Shown here: positions 14,947-38,067 of the stretch, one piece after another
Position numbering within the stretch: position 1 is the stretch's first letter
Layout: each line of letters begins with the position of its first letter
From: Microlunatus panaciterrae
Lineage (GTDB): Bacteria > Actinomycetota > Actinomycetes > Propionibacteriales > Propionibacteriaceae
Assembly: GCF_016907535.1 (NCBI RefSeq)
Contig: NZ_JAFBCF010000001.1
Location: 868,001 to 932,000 of the forward strand
DNA length: 64,000 nucleotides
Reading direction: 5' to 3'
The notes under the pieces: generated by a model
The model's database searches: none
Seen by the model: only the letters and a program-made list of their open reading frames with translations
Told to the model about the DNA's origin: nothing
Made by a program: the position numbers and the translations under genes

Positions 14947-15450
14947 GTGGGTAGCGGATCACATCGTGTCGGGCTCGGCCACGACCTGCACCGGCTGGAG
15001 CCCGGCGGGGCGCTGGTGCTGGGTGGGGTGCTGATCGATGCTCCGGTCGGCTTCGTCACGCACTCCGACGGGGACGTGCTCTGCCACGCCATTGTGGACG
15101 CGATGGCCGGCGCCCTGGCCGACGGGGACCTCGGGACCCATTTCCCCGAAGACGACCCGGAGGCCGAGGATGCCCGCAGCCTGGACTTCGTCAGCGAGCT
15201 GAACGCGACAGTGCGGGCTGCCGGCTATGTGGTCAGCTCGCTGGACAGCTTCATCGTGCTCGGGACGGTGCGGCTGCGTCCGCATCTGAACCAGATGAAA
15301 GCCAACATCGCGCTCGCTCTCGGCCTCGATCCGGCCCAGGTGTCGGTCAAGGCCCGGTCCAACGACGGAATCGGCCCCGAGGGTGAGGGGTCGGCCGCGA
15401 GCGCCAGCGCTGTCGTCCTGCTGGAGCAGCTGCCTGATCACGCGCCCTGA
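14947..15450 (+). CDS. ispF: 2-C-methyl-D-erythritol 2,4-cyclodiphosphate synthase
   Basis: Enzyme of the non-mevalonate isoprenoid pathway that cyclises CDP-methylerythritol 2-phosphate to MEcPP, normally a zinc-dependent cytoplasmic trimer. The metal-binding GLGHDLH is at residues 9-15 and the next histidine in THSDGDVLCH near 40. The C-terminal signature is KARSNDGIGPEGEGSAASA. The GTG at 14947 is chosen because AGGCGGGAG lies just upstream; the open frame upstream (to 14335) overlaps other genes and is not coding. At 167 residues it is slightly long for the family: the last codons and the TGA stop lie in or next to the first copy of a dispersed repeat, which supplies the stop. ispD is not next to it here. 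Confidence 0.93.
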   Translation: MGSGSHRVGLGHDLHRLEPGGALVLGGVLIDAPVGFVTHSDGDVLCHAIVDAMAGALADGDLGTHFPEDDPEAEDARSLDFVSELNATVRAAGYVVSSLDSFIVLGTVRLRPHLNQMKANIALALGLDPAQVSVKARSNDGIGPEGEGSAASASAVVLLEQLPDHAP

Positions 15451-15520
15451 GCCTGTCGACGCGCCCTGAGCCTGTCGACGCGCCCTGAGCCTGTCGACGC
15501 GCCGGGAGCCTGTCGAAGGG
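15442..15520. repeat. Four tandem 19-base copies of the CCTGAGCCTGTCGA repeat
   Basis: Copies of GCGCCCTGAGCCTGTCGAC start at 15442, 15461 and 15480; a fourth, diverged copy at 15499 ends in TGTCGAAGGGC. The unit belongs to the same family as the arrays at 32.6, 36.0 and 55.8 kb. The ispF stop codon TGA (15448-15450) is inside the first copy. The array fills the convergent gap between ispF and the Dabb gene. Confidence 0.95.
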
Positions 15521-27862: not shown

Positions 27863-29569
27863 CTAGGCGCTGACGCTGGCCCTCTGCGAGGGGGTGGTCG
27901 CTGCTCCGCTGCCGAACTTGCGCAGCAGTGCCGACCCGGCCACCTGCTCGATGTATTCCGGGTCACCGCAGACCACCAGTTCGTCGCGCGCACGGGACAG
28001 CCCGACGTAGAGCCGTTCCCTGGCCCGATCGCGTGGCTCGTTGTCGTTCACCGCCAACACCACAGCTCGGCGCTCCAGTCCCTTGAAGCCCAGCACGTGT
28101 CCGTAGAACACCTGATCATCGTCCCAGAAGGAGGCCCAGTAGGCGTCTTGGCTCTGTGCCTGGCGGATCACCTGCTCGGGGTGCCGCTTGCCGGTCGTCA
28201 GCAACGCGATGTCCTGGGCCCGCCAGCCTTCATCGAAAAGTGATTCAACGGCGTCGTCAGCTGTTCCGATCGCCTGCTCGGCGGCACAGGGAACCAGGCG
28301 TGCTTGAGGCCCGACTCCACCGCGGGCACGCATCCGCGTCAACGCGAGCGACTGGAAAGTGTCGGCGATCTGCCGGGTGTTGCGCAGGTTGTGCTCCAGC
28401 ATGAACACCGCCTGGCACTCCGGGATCCCCCCGAACCGAGCGAAGACGCGCTGACCCTCGTCGCTGTAGACATAGATTCCACCCTCGGCTGGGTTTTTCA
28501 GTGCGGCAAGCACGGCAGCCCACCAGCGGTCGGCGAAGTCCTGTGCCTCGTCCACAACAATCGCGTCGAACCTTCGCCCGACCGGCAGGCTGGCGGCGAT
28601 GGTGATCATCGAGGACGGCAGTTCCTCCTCCCAGTAACCGCTGTCTTCATCGCCGAGCACCGGAGGATGAGCACCCCATTGATCGATGCCCAAACCGTGG
28701 AACGTGCCGACATAGGCCGGCTGCTCCCTGCGTGGCCACTGGGTCGTCAGTCTCTGGAAGAAGGCCGCCAGACCGCGGGAGTAGCAGACGAGGGCCACCC
28801 GCTGCCCGGCCCTGGTCAGGCGACGAGCCTGTTCCATCGCCAACCAGGTCTTGCCCGACCCGGCACCGCCACGGATCTCCATTCGGTTCATCAACTTCGA
28901 AACCTCGAGCAGCATCCCCTGCTGCTGCGTCAGATGATCGGTCAGCACGTCGCGTTCGAGGGCCAGCGCCAGCACGTCATCCTGAGGGAGTCCGCGGCCG
29001 CGCAGGATCTCCTCGACGTCCTGCACGTCCTCGTTCGACGGCAGACGGTCTGACCCATGCTGCCGGATGGGGATGCGGGCGAGCTTATCCACCAGGTCGT
29101 CCAGGTCGTCGCGGCCGAACACCAGGTGGCGCGGACAGTCAGGCAGCGAGAAGTCCTCCGGAATGTGCGTGAACGGGAAGATCACGGCATGTCCATAACG
29201 GACTCTGCCACGCTGCCCCCACCGCGAATCCCGTTCGACGTAGCTGCGCAACAGGTACATGGCATCCCGCACCTGGGTGACCGGATCAATCGACTTTGCG
29301 TGACCACTCTGACTGGTCTGGGTCCAGCCGTCACCGTCGTGAGTCACCTGGCCGCCCTTGACCTCGACGGCGATCACGCCGGCGTCCGGTCGCGCCACGA
29401 TGAAGTCGATCTCGGCGTTCTTCCGATCGTCGGTCAACCGCTGGTTGGCCCAGAGACGGTCCGTCATGCTCCGGCCGGATGCCAATTTCTCCGCAACGAT
29501 CTTCTCCGCCAGCGACTCGTAGGCACGCTGCCCTCCCGCGCTCCCAGCCGATCCCCTGGGCTCAGACAC
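27863..29569 (-). CDS. NERD nuclease-domain / UvrD-like helicase
   Basis: 568-residue protein joining an N-terminal NERD nuclease-like domain with a superfamily 1 helicase. The NERD core is NAEIDFIVARPDAGVIAVEVKGG near residues 50-72, with the Asp and Glu-x-Lys expected of the restriction-endonuclease fold. Helicase motifs: Walker A GGAGSGKTW near 233, VDEAQDF near 340, EHNLRNTRQIA near 395 and LSRARDELVV near the C-terminus. I prefer the GTG at 29569, preceded by GGGGAGG, over the GTG eight codons upstream. It is divergent from the SIR2/macro-like gene and shares a 200-base regulatory gap with it. A role in defence or DNA repair is likely; no named system is claimed. Confidence 0.83.
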   Translation of the reverse strand: MSEPRGSAGSAGGQRAYESLAEKIVAEKLASGRSMTDRLWANQRLTDDRKNAEIDFIVARPDAGVIAVEVKGGQVTHDGDGWTQTSQSGHAKSIDPVTQVRDAMYLLRSYVERDSRWGQRGRVRYGHAVIFPFTHIPEDFSLPDCPRHLVFGRDDLDDLVDKLARIPIRQHGSDRLPSNEDVQDVEEILRGRGLPQDDVLALALERDVLTDHLTQQQGMLLEVSKLMNRMEIRGGAGSGKTWLAMEQARRLTRAGQRVALVCYSRGLAAFFQRLTTQWPRREQPAYVGTFHGLGIDQWGAHPPVLGDEDSGYWEEELPSSMITIAASLPVGRRFDAIVVDEAQDFADRWWAAVLAALKNPAEGGIYVYSDEGQRVFARFGGIPECQAVFMLEHNLRNTRQIADTFQSLALTRMRARGGVGPQARLVPCAAEQAIGTADDAVESLFDEGWRAQDIALLTTGKRHPEQVIRQAQSQDAYWASFWDDDQVFYGHVLGFKGLERRAVVLAVNDNEPRDRARERLYVGLSRARDELVVCGDPEYIEQVAGSALLRKFGSGAATTPSQRASVSA

Positions 29570-29768
29570 TGGGCCTCCCCTCTCACGCTTCACTTCGCCC
29601 GCGACTCTCAGCAGCGGCTTCTACTGAGTATTCATAGCGAACAGCGCTGACAAGTCCGAACGAGCTACTAATGAATCTTGTCAGTCCGACTGCAAGGACT
29701 CCCGACAACTGGCAGACTGCTGCCTCTGACTCCAGCTCTACATCTCGCAATTCGCCGTATGAGCACAA
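29570..29768. promoter_or_regulatory. Divergent gap with an 8-base inverted repeat
   Basis: The gap between the NERD-helicase and SIR2 genes is richer in A and T than most of the window. It contains a perfect inverted repeat CTGACAAG (29647-29654) and CTTGTCAG (29677-29684), centre-to-centre 30 bases. Each arm is followed by TCCG, so the arms also share a short direct pattern. Such an arrangement could bind one regulator controlling both genes. No clear -35/-10 pair was assigned. Confidence 0.5.
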
Positions 29769-31367
29769 ATGAGAACGGATCACCAGATGGACTCCAATCA
29801 TGGTCATGTCTTTGTCGTCAAAGGAAGGATCGGCAAGGTCGTCGCAGACGCTGCGGTTATATCGACCGACCTATTCTTCACCGTTGAGGATCACTGGCGC
29901 CCGGTGATTCAGCCTGGCGAGACCTCATTCGAGCCAGCGAATCACAAGCCATCCGATTGGGTGTCACGTGGTTGGGGTCGAAGCCCTGTCGATGGCCGAG
30001 AGGATCTCTGGTTCTTGGATGTCGCCTCGGATCGAGGCGAGGGCGACGACAGTTTTTCCCGGCTCAAGCAACTGCTCGATGCCATCGCGCAGAGCAACCT
30101 CAAAACGAAAATCCAAGGCAGGTTGCTGCCGTTGGTCGTTCTGCCGGTCATTGGCACTCGGGGGGGTGGGCAGGGCGCTCGTCGTGGCACTGTCGTCGAC
30201 AGTCTTCTCTCAGTGTGTCAAAGATTCGTCAGCGACAACGCCATCGACATCGCCATTGTCGTTCCGAACCCTTCTTCGTATGGGGCGATTCAGCACCACC
30301 GTATACAGGCTAAGAATCAGTCTTTTCCTAACGTGGACCTCGAGCAGGCGTCTCGTTTGGGTCGCGCAGCGAGGGAAGGTTCGCTGGCCCTCTTCGTCGG
30401 CGCAGGTACCAGCGTGCCCGCCGGACTTCCAGACTGGAAGGCTCTGATTGCGCAGTTGGCGAACGTGGCTCAGCTGGACGAGGCCGTACTGCAACACTTC
30501 AAGAAGTTGAGTCCCTTGGACCAAGCGCAACTCCTCCATCAGAAGCTTGGCGATGAACTGGCCTCCCGTGTCGTAGAGATCATCAACTGTTCGCACACGG
30601 GGGTCCCAGCGTTGGCACACACCCTGCTCGCTGGCCTTGACTGTCAATGTGCCGTGACGACCAACTATGACCGCCTGTACGAAGAAGCTGCGCTGAACGG
30701 TCAGACCGAGCGTGTTACCGCCGTTCTTCCCTCAACCGTGCCGAGTGGCGATCAGCGCTGGCTACTCAAGATGCATGGCTCTCTTGATCGTCCGGAAAGT
30801 ATCGTCCTCACCCGGGGTCAGTTCGCAGGGTTTGACTCTGCATATGGCCCGTCCGGGGCCGTGCTGCAGTCCTTGCTCTTGACGAAGCACCTTCTGGTCG
30901 TCGGCACGTCCATGACCGACGACAATGTCCTTCGATTGATTCATGAAGTGGCGGCCTACCGACGTAACGCGAGATCGTCCTCCACGAGCGGGTTCGACGA
31001 ACAAGAGCGCAAATTCGGTACCGTTGTGGATGTGAGCGCAGACCGAGCTCGCGAGGCACTCCACGGAGAGCATTTTCACTGGCTCTCCATGACGGGTGAA
31101 ACGGTGGCCGAGCGCGCACGTCAGCTTGAGATCTTCTTGGATGCAGTGAGCATGTTCGCCTCGAAGGACAGATCATGGCTTCTTGACCGTAGCTTCGAGT
31201 ACTTGCTAACGCCGGAAGAGCGGTCCTGGGCCGACCTACTGCGGGATGCCGCAGATGCCGTGGCCGGCTCTGGTGAGCGCAACGGGGCGTGGAAGGAGGT
31301 GGCGGACGCACTTACCGGGTTTGGCGCACGTCCCGTGACCGGCCCTGGGACCACCGGTGGCATGTAG
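29769..31367 (+). CDS. Macro-like domain fused to SIR2 domain protein
   Basis: 532 residues. The N-terminal ~190 residues resemble a macro-like ADP-ribose-binding fold: HVFVVKGRIGKVVADAAVIST at the start and LLPLVVLPVIGTRGGGQGA near residue 120. Residues ~205-400 form a SIR2 domain: NAD-binding ALFVGAGTSVPAGLPDW near 206, TTNYDRLYEEA near 296, catalytic-type histidine in KMHGSLDRPES near 335, and VVGTSMTDDNVLRLI near 377. The last ~130 residues are helical and unassigned. Bacterial SIR2 proteins of this kind often act as NAD-depleting effectors in phage defence. Base composition is lower in GC than its neighbours. ATG at 29769; another in-frame ATG at 29787 is possible. The SIR2 call is firm, the macro-like call moderate. 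Confidence 0.8.
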   Translation: MRTDHQMDSNHGHVFVVKGRIGKVVADAAVISTDLFFTVEDHWRPVIQPGETSFEPANHKPSDWVSRGWGRSPVDGREDLWFLDVASDRGEGDDSFSRLKQLLDAIAQSNLKTKIQGRLLPLVVLPVIGTRGGGQGARRGTVVDSLLSVCQRFVSDNAIDIAIVVPNPSSYGAIQHHRIQAKNQSFPNVDLEQASRLGRAAREGSLALFVGAGTSVPAGLPDWKALIAQLANVAQLDEAVLQHFKKLSPLDQAQLLHQKLGDELASRVVEIINCSHTGVPALAHTLLAGLDCQCAVTTNYDRLYEEAALNGQTERVTAVLPSTVPSGDQRWLLKMHGSLDRPESIVLTRGQFAGFDSAYGPSGAVLQSLLLTKHLLVVGTSMTDDNVLRLIHEVAAYRRNARSSSTSGFDEQERKFGTVVDVSADRAREALHGEHFHWLSMTGETVAERARQLEIFLDAVSMFASKDRSWLLDRSFEYLLTPEERSWADLLRDAADAVAGSGERNGAWKEVADALTGFGARPVTGPGTTGGM

Positions 31368-31908: not shown

Positions 31909-34900
31909 TCAGCTCGCAGCGACGAAAACTCCACCTGCGGTCCGGGCCAGATCGCCACGGTCGAGCGCCATCTGCAGGCCCACCTGTAGCCGCTCGCGGA
32001 TCGCGCTCGTCAACCGGCTGCCTCCGAAGACGACGTTCGTCTCCCGGAGCAGATCATCCTGCGTCATCCCGGCGGCCTCACGGCAGAGAAAGACCATGGC
32101 ATTGCCAATCTCCCGAAGGCTGATGTGCTCGATCGGTCGCTCGCTGCCCGACTGCTGTCGGCGATACCCGGACCAGCTGGCCTGGTCGACGTCGCGTGGC
32201 CAGGCGAAGGGCTCCCCCGCGCGGTCCCACAGCTCTCGCGGAACCGTCTGCAGAATCGACTGGGCCCGACCTTCACTGAGCCGGTTGAGGTCGAAGCTGC
32301 GCGCAACCAGACGGGCCAGTCGGTCGGCGTGGACGGGACCCTCCTGTTGCACGACCTGCTCCACTACCTGGCGAACCTGCGCCGTCGCCCGAGCTGCCGG
32401 CAGCCCGTTCAGCACGCCTCGCGGGCCGACGATGGTGGACGGCCATGCGGCGAAGCGGTTGTCCTCGTTGCGCGTTGCGGTGCGACGAAGTGCCTCCGTA
32501 ATTGGCCCTTCGACAGGCTCAGGGCGCGGGGATCTGGGCTCAGGGCGCGGAGCTCCAGGCTCAGGGCGCGAGAATCCGGGCTCAGCACGCCCTTCGACAG
32601 GCTCAGGGCGCGGAGCTCCGAGCTCAGGGGTACGCCCTTCGACAGGCTCAGGGCGCGAGAATCCAGGCTCAGGGCGCGAAGATCCAGGCGCGGCGGTACG
32701 CCCTTCGACAGGCTCACGGCCCGAGAATCCAGGCTCAGGGCGCGGGGCTCCAGGCTCGGGGCGGGCGTCCGGCTGCTCGACCGCCCGGATCAGCCGCTGG
32801 ATGGTGGGCTCCGGATCGCGCAGCCAGGCGGGCAGCCAGACCCGTTCCACGGCGGGCCAGCGAAGCATCCGGGACAGCACCTCGATCGGCAGGCCGTCGC
32901 GGTCACCGACGGTGCCGCGCCTGGCCCAGTCCGGGCCGTCGAGCAGGACAGCGAGCCGCGGGGCATCGGGTTCTGCGGCGCTGGCGACCTCGAGATCGAT
33001 CTTGAAGTCGGACAGCCCGACATTGGTGCTGACCACCAGACCGCGCTGCCGCAGCACCTCGGCCACCTGTTCGCGGTGCCGGTCGGGCAGGCTGGGGCGC
33101 CGCTGTCGGGTGACCAGAGACTCGAGCACCTGGGGCCCGGAGGCTGCCATGTCCAGGTACGCCCGCAGGTCCTTGATTCCCCGCGAGGACGTCTCCTCGG
33201 TCCGCAACTGCTGAGGGTCGAACGAGGAGAAGACGATCACCCGTCGGCGGGCGCGGGTGACGGCCACGTTCAGCCTCCGCTCGCCGCCCTCCCGGTTCAG
33301 CGGCCCGAAGTTGAGAGGCAGCCTGCCGTTGTGGTCGACGCTGAACGCGGTGGAGAAGAAGATCACGTCCCGCTCGTCGCCTTGGACATTCTCCAGGTTC
33401 TTCACGAACAGGCCGTCATCGGCGTCGTCCAGCGCCTCGAGGATCCGGTCGTCGCCACAGTCACGCAGCAGCGACTCGATCAGCGTCCGCTGCTGGATGT
33501 TGAAGGTGACGATACCGATCGACGGCAGAGTCTGTGGGGATCCGTCGAAGCGGCGTCGCACCTCGGCGACGATCGTCTCGGCCTCCACCGGGTTGGTGCG
33601 ATGCAGCTTTCCACGGGTGCGCTGGAACTCCCCCTGCACCCGGACCAGGCTGACCCCGACGTCGTCCACCCCGTCGGCCGCGGCGCGGCGATGCGGCGCC
33701 GGGAAGGAGGACAGCCGATCCTCGTAGTACAAGGCGTTGCTGAACGCGATCAGCGACTCGTCCTGACTGCGGTAGTGCCACGACAACCACTGCTGTGGCA
33801 CCCGCGCCTGGACGCACTCGGACAGGATGCTCTCCTCGTCCTCCACCACGCTGAGCGTGTCGGCCAGCTCGGCGAGCTCCTCGTCACCGATGTCCAGCGA
33901 CGGTTCGCCGAAGCTGGTCGGAGGCATCTGCTTGGAGTCTCCGACAACGACGACCGACTTTGACCGGCCGATCGCCCCGATCGCGTCCGCGACCCGGATC
34001 TGCGAGGCCTCATCGAACACCACCAGGTCGAACAAGCCCTGCTGGGCCGGAAAGAACCGAGACAGCGAGTCCGGGCTGACCAGCACACACGGCATCACCT
34101 GGGTGATCAGGTCGCCATACTGCGCCACCAGGCTCCGCACGGTCAACCCACGCCGCTGTTTGCTCAGCTCGCGGCGGAGCGAGCCGATGCGTCCGGACTC
34201 GTTGGACGAGTTGAACGGCCGGTTGGCCAACACCTGATGTGGCAGCAGCGCGGCCTGCTGCGCTCGCAGCGAGGCGGCGGACATGGTGAACCGGCTGATC
34301 GTCTTGTCGTGCACCTGCGGATCGAAGGCGGCCAGCCCCGTCGCTCCAGACCGCTCGGCCAACGACGCTGTGGCCACACCCAGGTCGAAGGCCTGAACCG
34401 CGTCGTCGGCGCGCACGCGTCCGGTCAACAGCGCGGTCCGGGTCGCCGCCAGGCCAGCCTGCCGGATGGGTTCCAGGGCGGCGACGAAGGCGATCCAGCG
34501 CCGCAGATCGAGCAGCTGCGGGTCATCAAGGTCGCGCTGACCCGTACTGTTTCGCCACGTGGTGACCAGACCGCAGCCGGCGGACCATGACGCCGCGTCC
34601 TCCGGTGATGCTGCTGTCACAGCCTCCAGCCGGGTGAAGGCCGCGACCAGCGCGCCGAGGCTGCCCAACTCGTGCTGGCCCAGTTGCCGGCCGGGGCCCA
34701 GAAAGCTGCGCAGGGACGGGCCCACCGGCCGGTCAGAGTCCGGGGCGACACAGGCGGAGGCCCACTGAAGCCATCCAACCTGTGCGTCCAGCTGCTCGGT
34801 CGCGGCAGGCGTCAGCGGGTTCCAGTCCTGCGTGATCATGATGCCCGGGATCTTGGCGGCCTGCCGGCCCAGATCCCACGCCAACTGCTGGGTCTGATGC

Positions 34901-37900
34901 AGCTCGGCGACCAGGACTGGCACGTCCTTCGGTTTCACCGACGCCTCCGGACGCAGACCGGGGCGCAACTGCTCGAGTACCGCCTTGAGCCGCTTGCGCC
35001 GGCCGAAGAAGCCCGAGGCAGCCGCCGCCTGCGCCTGCTCGAGGATCTGTGCCAGCGGCAGGTTCAGCACCGCCGGCGTGGCCAGATGCATACCGGGATG
35101 CTGCGTCGCTGCGAAGTCGACGGTGCGAGAACGTACGTCGTCCACCGCTGGCCGCCAGAACGGTCCCCGAACCTCGTCGAGTACCCACAGCTGCCCCTGT
35201 GGACTGGTGAGGATCTGGTTGACCATGGCCAGCTCCTGCGCGTTGCCCACCTGGTCGAGCACGTCGGCCAACGGATGATCACCGGGAATGGCGGCAACGG
35301 CGGCGTCGACGGCGCGGGCCGCCTGCCGGATGGCGTCCGGATCGGCACGCTGCGGGTCCATCGCGCCGACGAACCCCCACGGGTGCTCGGGCCTGGGGTT
35401 GGCCAGATCGGCGGTGTCCGGAAGGTCACGAAGGACGGTGCGGATGGTCGCGGTGCGGTCAGCCGCCTCGGGAGCGCCTACCAGATGCGGCGGCACCGGC
35501 AGCTCCTGGCTCAGGTGTCCGAGCGCGAGGCGACCGGTGTGGGCCGAGTAGAACGACAACCCTGCCGGGTTGGTGGAGTGAATGCTCCGTGCATACCGGT
35601 CGAGGCTCTGCCGGGTCGCCCGGAGGCGTTCCTGCTCCGCCGCGAAACCTTGCGCGTCGATGTCGATCCGGGCGTCCAGTGCCTGCCGGATCTGGTTGCG
35701 CACCACCACGGGTTTGCTGCCCTTGTCGTGCAGGTCAAGTGAGAAGAGGCCCATACCTACGTCGTCCAGCCGTTTGCGGACGACGTCCAACGCCGCCCGC
35801 TTCTCGGCGACGAAGAGCACCCGCTGGCCCTCCGCCATGGCCCTCGTCAGCAGGTTGGTGATCGTCTGTGACTTGCCCGTGCCGGGAGGACCCTCCAGGA
35901 CGAACGTCCTGCCGGCCACGGCGGCGGCGACCGCCGCGAGCTGGGAGGCGTCCGCCGGCACCGGACAGGCGGCAGCAAGCTCGTCCAGGTCGATGCCCTT
36001 CGACAGGCTCAGGGCGCGAGGATCGGGGCTCACGGCGTCCGGATCGATGCCCTTCGACAGGCTCAGGGCGCGAAGATCAGGACTCGGGGCGTGGGGATCA
36101 GGGCTCAGGGCGCGAGGATCAGAGCTCAGGGCGCGGGGGTCCTGAAAGGTTTCGGTCGGGGTCTCGATCAGGTGCCGGACCAGCGGGTTGGCGCTGAAGG
36201 CCTGCCACTGCTCGTCCAGGTCCTTCCAGAGCCGGAACTTGGCGAACTGCAGCACGGCCACATGGGCGGTCTCCTCGACCCGGTAGGGCAACCCGGCCTG
36301 GTTCACCGCCAGCCTGACCGACTGGAGGGCGGCGTTCAGGTCGATGCCGGCCGCATCATCCTCTGGCTCGGACAGGTCGGGGATCTCCAGCCCGTGCACC
36401 TGGCGCAGCTTCTCCAACAGACAGAAGTTGGGCGCGCTGGTGCCGCTCTCGTCCAGGCCGATCCGGTACAGCCCACCGCGCCCCGCAGGCTTGAGCTGCA
36501 CCGGCACCAAGATCAACGGGGACCGCAACGGACGACCGTCCAGTTTCCACACCAGCGAGCCGAGAGCAAGATAGAGGTTGTTGGCGCCGCTCTCCTCCAC
36601 GATCGTGCGGGCCTTGTAGGCCAGGTTGCGCATTCGGGTGGCATAGCCACCTGCCGGAATGTCGCAGAACAGCTGCGCCCGGCCGGTCAGCAGGGCTGCC
36701 CGATCGTCGGCCGGCAGCTCCCAACCGGAGACGAGTCCACGCGCCGTGTGCACGGCGTCGATCTGGTCGCGGGCCAGCAGCGTCACCTGCTTGGGCTCGT
36801 TGACGATGTCCTCCAGGGCGCCCAACTGACCGTCCGGAACCGACAGGGCCAGTCCTGAGCGGTCGGAGAAGTTGATCAAGCGATTCCGCAGCGACAGGTC
36901 GAGCAGGGCGTTCTTCCAGTTCTGCACCCGCGGCGGCGCCTCGACGCGGCCCCCAGCGGTGCGGCGCGCTGCGCTCCGGTCCGGGGCATACCCCGCCGGT
37001 CCCGATACCGCTGGACGGTACTCGAAGACCTGCACTGTGTCGTCGGTGCCGCGGACCCGGGCCGGCAACGGGATGATGCGGTTCCGGCGTGCCTCATAGA
37101 TGTCGATCACGCCCTGCACCCGGTCGGCGTCGCCAGTGAGGTACTCCGCATATGGCCCGCGCTGCAGCCCGGCGAGGTCGGTAGGTCCCTGACCAGCAGT
37201 GATCAACGTCGTCTCGATCAACCCGACAGCCTTGAGGTCGATCAAGTTGATCAAGGCCGAAGGGTCGGTTGCCAAGACGTCCTGCATGGACGCCTCCATC
37301 CGCCAGTACCCGAGGAAGGCATGGCCCTGGACCAGGAAGACCAGCGGCCTGATGCCTGCCTGCTCCAACACGGCAGCCAGGGCGAGCGTCAGGTCGAGGC
37401 AGGTGCCCAGCGGGGTGTCGAAGACCTCACCCGGAGTCCTGATCTTCTGCCCCACGTCGGACCAGCTGGCCGGCGGTTCGGCGTAACGGATCTGCCGGCC
37501 GGCGGCCGCGATGACGACCGCGTTGACGATCTCGTCCACCCGCTGCTGGCCAGCCTGATAGCCCTCCAATGAGGGGCTGCCGGTGCTCCGGCCCAGAATC
37601 GTCGACGCCTCCACCAGCAGCCGCTCCACAGCCGGGTGGTTGGGCATCACGAACGAGGCGAGGATCTCGTCGGTGACGGCTGATCCGTTGCGCAGCCACT
37701 GGTTGGCCGCCAGAATCCGCACCGGGACCTGGCCGCGGCCCAGCAGCGCCTCACCATCACGCACCTCCACCTCGATGCTGCCGGGCCGCTGCTCCTCGAC
37801 CTGCGCCATCTGCCCGGGATCGAGCCGCACCGGGATGTCCCTGAGCACCGTCTGCTGGTCGGCCTCGAGGTCGGCGGGGGTCTCGAACGGCTCGCTCAGC

Positions 37901-38067
37901 ACCCCCTGCGCATCGCGGATCATCACCGTCACGGTCGCACCGCGGACAGCGACTGGTGATCCCGACAAGGTGACCTGGCCGATCACCGGGATCCGGTTGT
38001 GTGCCAGCGCATAGCTCAGCACGTCGATCGCCTGGATGTCGATCGTCAGCCGTTGACCGTCCGTCAC
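31909..38067 (-). CDS. Giant DUF4011 / SF1 helicase / nuclease-like / DUF3320 protein
   Basis: 2052 residues. An N-terminal region includes a transglutaminase-like segment (DTPLGTCLDLTLALAAVLEQ near 215); the DUF4011 start is WKNALLDLSLRNRLINFSDR near 385. The helicase core has Walker A GPPGTGKSQT near 728, DEAS in VVFDEASQIRVADA near 1350 and VAVTRARRRVIVF near 1605. A restriction-endonuclease-like (MTES_1575/Vsr type) region with LSDFKIDLEV lies near 1690, and DUF3320 ends the protein. The GTG at 38067 has AAGGAG five bases before it. Proteins of this layout occur in defence-associated loci. Two low-complexity insertions, at ~641-691 and ~1766-1855, are encoded by dispersed DNA repeats kept in frame; they interrupt linkers, not the motifs. 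Confidence 0.87.
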   Translation of the reverse strand: MTDGQRLTIDIQAIDVLSYALAHNRIPVIGQVTLSGSPVAVRGATVTVMIRDAQGVLSEPFETPADLEADQQTVLRDIPVRLDPGQMAQVEEQRPGSIEVEVRDGEALLGRGQVPVRILAANQWLRNGSAVTDEILASFVMPNHPAVERLLVEASTILGRSTGSPSLEGYQAGQQRVDEIVNAVVIAAAGRQIRYAEPPASWSDVGQKIRTPGEVFDTPLGTCLDLTLALAAVLEQAGIRPLVFLVQGHAFLGYWRMEASMQDVLATDPSALINLIDLKAVGLIETTLITAGQGPTDLAGLQRGPYAEYLTGDADRVQGVIDIYEARRNRIIPLPARVRGTDDTVQVFEYRPAVSGPAGYAPDRSAARRTAGGRVEAPPRVQNWKNALLDLSLRNRLINFSDRSGLALSVPDGQLGALEDIVNEPKQVTLLARDQIDAVHTARGLVSGWELPADDRAALLTGRAQLFCDIPAGGYATRMRNLAYKARTIVEESGANNLYLALGSLVWKLDGRPLRSPLILVPVQLKPAGRGGLYRIGLDESGTSAPNFCLLEKLRQVHGLEIPDLSEPEDDAAGIDLNAALQSVRLAVNQAGLPYRVEETAHVAVLQFAKFRLWKDLDEQWQAFSANPLVRHLIETPTETFQDPRALSSDPRALSPDPHAPSPDLRALSLSKGIDPDAVSPDPRALSLSKGIDLDELAAACPVPADASQLAAVAAAVAGRTFVLEGPPGTGKSQTITNLLTRAMAEGQRVLFVAEKRAALDVVRKRLDDVGMGLFSLDLHDKGSKPVVVRNQIRQALDARIDIDAQGFAAEQERLRATRQSLDRYARSIHSTNPAGLSFYSAHTGRLALGHLSQELPVPPHLVGAPEAADRTATIRTVLRDLPDTADLANPRPEHPWGFVGAMDPQRADPDAIRQAARAVDAAVAAIPGDHPLADVLDQVGNAQELAMVNQILTSPQGQLWVLDEVRGPFWRPAVDDVRSRTVDFAATQHPGMHLATPAVLNLPLAQILEQAQAAAASGFFGRRKRLKAVLEQLRPGLRPEASVKPKDVPVLVAELHQTQQLAWDLGRQAAKIPGIMITQDWNPLTPAATEQLDAQVGWLQWASACVAPDSDRPVGPSLRSFLGPGRQLGQHELGSLGALVAAFTRLEAVTAASPEDAASWSAGCGLVTTWRNSTGQRDLDDPQLLDLRRWIAFVAALEPIRQAGLAATRTALLTGRVRADDAVQAFDLGVATASLAERSGATGLAAFDPQVHDKTISRFTMSAASLRAQQAALLPHQVLANRPFNSSNESGRIGSLRRELSKQRRGLTVRSLVAQYGDLITQVMPCVLVSPDSLSRFFPAQQGLFDLVVFDEASQIRVADAIGAIGRSKSVVVVGDSKQMPPTSFGEPSLDIGDEELAELADTLSVVEDEESILSECVQARVPQQWLSWHYRSQDESLIAFSNALYYEDRLSSFPAPHRRAAADGVDDVGVSLVRVQGEFQRTRGKLHRTNPVEAETIVAEVRRRFDGSPQTLPSIGIVTFNIQQRTLIESLLRDCGDDRILEALDDADDGLFVKNLENVQGDERDVIFFSTAFSVDHNGRLPLNFGPLNREGGERRLNVAVTRARRRVIVFSSFDPQQLRTEETSSRGIKDLRAYLDMAASGPQVLESLVTRQRRPSLPDRHREQVAEVLRQRGLVVSTNVGLSDFKIDLEVASAAEPDAPRLAVLLDGPDWARRGTVGDRDGLPIEVLSRMLRWPAVERVWLPAWLRDPEPTIQRLIRAVEQPDARPEPGAPRPEPGFSGREPVEGRTAAPGSSRPEPGFSRPEPVEGRTPELGAPRPEPVEGRAEPGFSRPEPGAPRPEPRSPRPEPVEGPITEALRRTATRNEDNRFAAWPSTIVGPRGVLNGLPAARATAQVRQVVEQVVQQEGPVHADRLARLVARSFDLNRLSEGRAQSILQTVPRELWDRAGEPFAWPRDVDQASWSGYRRQQSGSERPIEHISLREIGNAMVFLCREAAGMTQDDLLRETNVVFGGSRLTSAIRERLQVGLQMALDRGDLARTAGGVFVAAS
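32505..32770. repeat. In-frame repeat array A inside the giant helicase gene
   Basis: Four core copies of CCCTTCGACAGGCTCAGGG (with one variant) begin at 32505, 32589, 32634 and 32700; their spacings of 84, 45 and 66 bases are all multiples of three. Between them are shorter 21-base units starting GGCTCAGGGCGCG. On the coding strand the array reads as RPEPVEG and RPEPGFS-type peptides, in a linker between the nuclease-like region and DUF3320. Confidence 0.95.
35995..36143. repeat. In-frame repeat array B inside the giant helicase gene
   Basis: Two core copies of CCCTTCGACAGGCTCAGGG (35995 and 36049, 54 bases apart) are followed by partial 21-base units. On the coding strand they read as ALSLSKG and DPRALSP peptides, that is, in a different frame from array A. 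The array lies between DUF4011 and the Walker A motif. Confidence 0.95.

What the first reader, a model, noticed from the sequence alone, without database searches (positions are those of the whole stretch)
31909..38067. Dispersed DNA repeats domesticated in frame as peptide linkers in a giant helicase-nuclease
Seen: six core copies of CCCTTCGACAGGCTCAGGG sit inside one gene, in two arrays. Spacings inside each array (84, 45, 66; and 54 bases) are multiples of three, and accessory units are 21 or 24 bases. Array A reads RPEPVEG-type peptides; array B reads ALSLSKG-type peptides because it is in another frame. In the gene's direction the third frame of the unit contains TGA and is not used. The arrays avoid the helicase and nuclease motifs. 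Inference: the protein tolerates repeat expansion in linkers, perhaps varying length between strains.
Basis: partly seen in the sequence, partly recalled or inferred. Interest (0 to 1): 0.75.

Follow-up and report, generated by a model that had tools for sequence, protein, structure and literature searches.

The report
Intergenic hairpin repeats inside helicase linkers
A short hairpin-like DNA repeat that normally sits between this actinobacterium's genes has twice spread inside one large candidate anti-phage helicase-nuclease gene, only in frame and only in predicted floppy linkers, which is a clear new example of a known phenomenon (REP-tagged proteins) rather than evidence of a new peptide function.

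Summary
In detail: six cores (five exact, one with a mismatch) lie in two arrays in one 2052-aa gene on the minus strand, with the stated spacings and frames. The gene is DUF4011–AAA_11/12–MTES_1575 nuclease–DUF3320, a candidate phage-defence helicase (PADLOC PDC-S37/Hhe models). Array B is a 41-residue insertion absent from all 27 aligned homologues. Array A fills a linker whose length already varies (52–138 aa). AlphaFold models both as unstructured. The repeat is a REP-like short palindrome with a 5-bp stem that shows compensatory changes. It is expanded in one genus, and 85% of sampled copies are intergenic, in 11% of the DNA. Intergenic units are spaced 19–20 nt (26% multiples of three). 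In this gene 12 of 12 spacings are multiples of three, using a 21-nt unit found nowhere else in the genome, and that one unit is read in two frames. This supports in-frame survival of repeats where a chain tolerates filler. It speaks against selection on the peptide, so 'domesticated' is not supported. Strain variation could not be tested. REPs inside DNA-repair and helicase genes were described in 2013 (PMC3733652). A new member of a known kind.

The parts
31909..38067 (-). Host gene: 2052-aa DUF4011 / superfamily-1 helicase / MTES_1575 (PD-(D/E)xK-like) nuclease / DUF3320 protein; PADLOC PDC-S37 and Hhe models
32505..32763 (+). Array A: about 12 units, mostly 21 nt (GGCTCAGGGCGCGRRRNTCNR), four carrying the full TTCGACA core; reads RPEPGxP/RPEPVEG in the linker between nuclease and DUF3320 (about aa 1769-1855)
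35996..36135 (+). Array B: same 21-nt unit, two full cores, in another frame (DPRALSP/ALSLSKG); about 123 nt = 41-residue net insertion between DUF4011 and AAA_11; a 54-bp tandem repeat includes host-like codons (GIDPDAV / GIDLDEL)
32506..32524 (+). core repeat copy 1, exact
32590..32608 (+). core repeat copy 2, exact
32635..32653 (+). core repeat copy 3, exact
32701..32719 (+). core repeat copy 4, one mismatch (CACGG)
35996..36014 (+). core repeat copy 5, exact
36050..36068 (+). core repeat copy 6, exact
36406..36906 (-). DUF4011 (aa 388-554)
35689..35952 (-). AAA_11 with Walker A GPPGTGKS (aa 706-793)
   Evidence: GPPGTGKS invariant in A1
33226..33834 (-). AAA_12 helicase domain 2 (aa 1412-1614)
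32782..33072 (-). MTES_1575 nuclease (aa 1666-1762)
32281..32391 (-). DUF3320 (aa 1893-1929), in frame downstream of array A

Best explanation
A REP-like short palindrome (consensus GCYCT-TCGACARGCTC-AGRGC-RCG; 5-bp stem around an invariant 11-nt centre) that has multiplied between genes in one actinobacterial genus landed inside a candidate defence helicase-nuclease gene. Copies and a 21-nt derivative unit then spread by local tandem duplication at two sites 3.4 kb apart. Only frame-keeping versions survived, in a disordered linker (A) and an exposed interdomain loop (B), where the chain tolerates hydrophilic Pro/Asp/Glu/Ser-rich filler. Shown: anatomy, absence in homologues, frame bias, predicted disorder, intergenic norm. 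Inferred: order of events, neutrality, and how the repeats move.
For: Array B is absent from every homologue: 33-40 residues between conserved H and D against 75 here. Linker A is 52-138 aa in homologues, median 70, against 109 here. Both arrays have pLDDT of about 40 and no secondary structure. Of 235 sampled copies, 200 are intergenic in 11% of the DNA. Unit spacing is a multiple of 3 in 37/142 intergenic steps (mode 19) and 12/12 in this gene (mode 21). The 21-nt unit occurs 9 times in the genome, all in these two arrays. Other intragenic copies lie between the halves of an ABC transporter, in the Lgt and COX15 tails and before a sortase domain. The stem covaries: C-G to T-A at pair 3 in 41 copies, 209/235 paired against 142 shuffled. 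REP literature proposes neutral linker insertions (PMC3733652).
Against: The 12 spacings are not independent, because once a 21-nt unit exists slippage keeps the frame; the naive 1e-7 overstates the case. Neutrality is not shown; no close relative allows a dN/dS or length test. No mobilising enzyme was found.
Confidence: 0.85

Rival explanations
1. Domestication proper: the repeat-encoded peptides are selected because they tune the helicase-nuclease (spacing, binding, phage-specific variation by array length).
For: Two arrays in one gene, both in linkers. Fast-evolving defence genes could profit from length variation (established knowledge). PMC3733652 speculates that REP-tagged repair genes are functionally altered.
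Against: The same 21-nt unit is read in two frames giving unrelated peptides. No homologue keeps either peptide. Similar insertions lie in unrelated proteins. Linker A length stays within the homologue range.
Confidence: 0.08
2. The arrays act on mRNA or DNA (hairpins that pause ribosomes or RNA polymerase, or bind a protein) and the peptide is incidental.
For: The core is a palindrome with stem covariation genome-wide and intergenic copies are enriched between convergent genes.
Against: RNA of either array folds no better than dinucleotide shuffles (z 0.53 and 1.33); the single core is weak, -2.7 to -3.6 kcal/mol.
Confidence: 0.05
3. The arrays are assembly errors, or the gene is a decaying pseudogene.
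For: Repeats are error-prone and no reads were available.
Against: Single-contig genome, 99.78% complete; units differ from one another, which helps assembly; the reading frame is open throughout and the domains on both sides are intact, including the Walker A motif.
Confidence: 0.02

Closest known systems
Intragenic REPs ('REP-tagged' proteins), Di Nocera et al. 2013, PMC3733652
   Same: Short palindromic, mainly intergenic repeats found in frame inside coding genes, often DNA repair genes or helicases; clusters encoding 43-82 aa; linker or loop neutrality already proposed
   Different: Repeat lacks the GTAG and CGTC tags; 5-bp stem and 11-nt centre; one private 21-nt unit read in two frames in one gene
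Rickettsia palindromic elements (RPE)
   Same: Palindromic repeats inserted in frame in protein genes; two RPE types are counted among CGTC repeats by PMC3733652
   Different: Different lineage; here only a minority of copies are genic (29 of 235) and arrays are mostly head-to-tail; sequence relation not tested
PADLOC PDC-S37 / Hhe helicase-nuclease defence genes
   Same: Same domain order; PDC-S37 model E 9.6e-259, Hhe 6.4e-114
   Different: Homologues lack the arrays; anti-phage activity untested

Membership tests
REP (repetitive extragenic palindrome), broad sense | short palindrome able to form a hairpin | tested here: met
   5-bp stem; pairs 1-4 exceed every shuffle, pair 3 with 41 T-A against 167 C-G
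REP (repetitive extragenic palindrome), broad sense | high copy number, mainly intergenic, favouring tandem/convergent gaps | tested here: met
   179 exact copies; 200 IGR, 29 in ORFs, 6 edge; 76 convergent, 98 tandem, 25 divergent copies
GTAG REP / RAYT system | terminal GTAG tag | tested here: not met
   common 19- and 27-mers carry no GTAG
GTAG REP / RAYT system | RAYT (Y1_Tnp) transposase in the genome | tested here: not met
   PF01797 absent from this genome and 33 relatives; control genomes give hits
CGTC REP | terminal CGTC tag, 8-9-bp stem, CCA tail | tested here: not met
   stem 5 bp, flank CRCG against the definition
REP-tagged protein | REP inside a real ORF, in frame, absent from homologues | tested here: met
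PDC-S37 / Hhe defence gene | DUF4011-helicase-nuclease-DUF3320 architecture | tested here: met
PDC-S37 / Hhe defence gene | anti-phage activity | not testable with these tools
   needs phage challenge

The most novel reading that the evidence does not exclude
The 19-20-nt intergenic repeat acquired a frame-compatible 21-nt form inside this gene and copied itself between two linkers, making length-variable loops in a defence helicase that tune its activity between strains.
Probability: 0.07. Interest if true: 0.65.

Novelty: new member of a known kind. Interest (0 to 1): 0.33.

Why it matters
It gives a clean contrast within one genome: the same repeat has a 19-20-nt period between genes and multiples of three inside a gene. 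One unit is read in two frames, which separates selection on frame from selection on peptide. It also warns annotators that peptides such as ALSLSKG, RPEPVEG, PFDRLR, LRQAQG and STGSG in predicted proteins can be translated intergenic repeats.

Tried and rejected
Replichore polarity of the repeat: suggested by the listing, rejected because both listings are truncated and the second shows reverse copies that the first omits. RAYT/IS200-type mobilisation: no Y1_Tnp in the genus. Known RNA family: none in Rfam for the window. mRNA structure of the arrays: no better than shuffles. Text searches for the repeat sequence found no paper; searches for its peptides found only unrelated papers. Searches with the full 2052-aa protein failed for technical reasons; a 475-aa piece was used instead. 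A first count of copies missed some one-mismatch cores because of the matching routine; it was redone with an explicit mismatch count.

Full report
Observation. The six cores, spacings, frames and gene are as reported. One core (32701) carries a mismatch. Thirteen matches with up to three mismatches occur in the window against 0.04 expected.

Host gene. The 2052-aa product carries DUF4011 (388-554), AAA_11 (706-793), AAA_12 (1412-1614), the MTES_1575 nuclease (1666-1762) and DUF3320 (1893-1929). It matches PADLOC PDC-S37 (E 9.6e-259) and Hhe (6.4e-114). Array B lies between DUF4011 and AAA_11; array A lies between the nuclease and DUF3320.

Homologues. Homologues from Arthrobacter, Mycobacterium, Pseudokineococcus, Phytoactinopolyspora and others, and from the same family, all lack array B. 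The interval between a conserved H and D is 33-40 residues in 27 homologues and 75 here. The array A interval is 52-138 residues in 26 homologues (median 70) and 109 here, so A occupies a naturally variable linker rich in Pro, Ala, Glu, Ser and Thr. AlphaFold models built from 28 and 27 sequences give both arrays pLDDT of about 40 and no secondary structure, while flanking domains are mostly confident.

The repeat. It is genus-expanded: 14 of the 19 other congeners sampled carry it (2 to 892 pattern matches, slightly double-counted) and five do not; among other relatives it is rare. The exact core was found in 5 of 295 other actinobacterial genomes drawn across the phylum. On plasmids of Sphingobium, Comamonas, Moraxella and others, a 33-nt query built on the same core finds related sequence, with identical stretches of 27-28 nt in Sphingobium and Sphingomonas, so near-identical repeats exist in Proteobacteria. 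The consensus is GCYCT-TCGACARGCTC-AGRGC-RCG, a 5-bp stem with compensatory variation at pairs 3 and 4. No Y1 transposase is encoded in the genome or in 33 relatives. Neither the GTAG nor the CGTC super-family definition is met.

Where copies lie. In about 0.9 Mb sampled, 200 copies are intergenic, 29 inside called ORFs and 6 at edges, with 11% of the DNA non-coding. ORFs were called with a simple codon-usage method, so edges are approximate. Nine of the 29 are in one 95-aa ORF made of the repeat itself, probably spurious. The others include the linker between the halves of an ABC transporter fusion, the tails of Lgt and COX15, an N-terminal extension of a WS/DGAT acyltransferase and the region before a sortase domain. 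A second species of the genus (G002) shows a similar pattern: 37 intergenic, 10 in ORFs, mostly termini; too few spacings were available there to repeat the frame test.

Frame test. Successive GCTCA[GC]GG units in intergenic arrays are spaced mostly 19 or 20 nt; 37 of 142 spacings are multiples of three. In this gene 12 of 12 are (7 x 21, 24, 33, 2 x 42, 45). The naive probability is 1e-7, but units made by slippage are not independent. In other genes 15 of 16 are multiples of three, eight of them from the spurious 95-aa ORF.

A private unit read in two frames. The 21-nt unit GCTCAGGGCGCGRRRATCNRG is found nine times in the genome (up to one mismatch), all in arrays A and B. The two arrays therefore probably share a recent source, yet A reads RPEPGxP and B reads DPRALSP. 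Peptide sequence was not what was kept; an open frame was. Array B also shows a 54-bp tandem repeat whose copies read GIDPDAV and GIDLDEL, the latter aligning with host sequence, which suggests local duplication across the insertion edge (inference).

Conclusion. REP-like repeats entered a tolerant gene, were filtered for frame and expanded in linkers. PMC3733652 described such REP-tagged proteins, including helicases and repair enzymes, and proposed neutral linker insertion. The new points are the repeat family, the host gene and the two-frame private unit. Functional domestication and strain variation remain untested.

Noticed in passing
G000:C1:1142521-1142805 (L092): Nine exact 24-nt head-to-tail copies of the repeat create a 95-aa ORF of (ALSLSKGR)n, probably spurious.
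   Followed up: partly
window 29769-31367 (+) and 27863-29593 (-): Neighbours match PADLOC ThsA-type SIR2 and NERD-UvrD helicase models, suggesting a defence island.
   Followed up: no
plasmids of Sphingobium, Novosphingobium, Comamonas, Moraxella: The same palindromic core occurs nearly unchanged in Proteobacteria, with no annotated feature under the listed matches: an apparently unnamed cross-phylum repeat.
   Followed up: partly
L063:3175-7104 (-): ABC transporter fusion with repeat copies encoding (RPEPVEGLELAA)n between its two halves, a second linker insertion in the same genome.
   Followed up: partly
window 15445-15520: Four copies at a 19-nt period, mostly in an intergenic gap: the frame-breaking period absent from the helicase gene.
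   Followed up: partly
G005, G008, G013, G016, G019 against G002, G004: Repeat copy number ranges from 0 to about 900 within one genus, so gene presence/absence could point to the mobilising factor.
   Followed up: no
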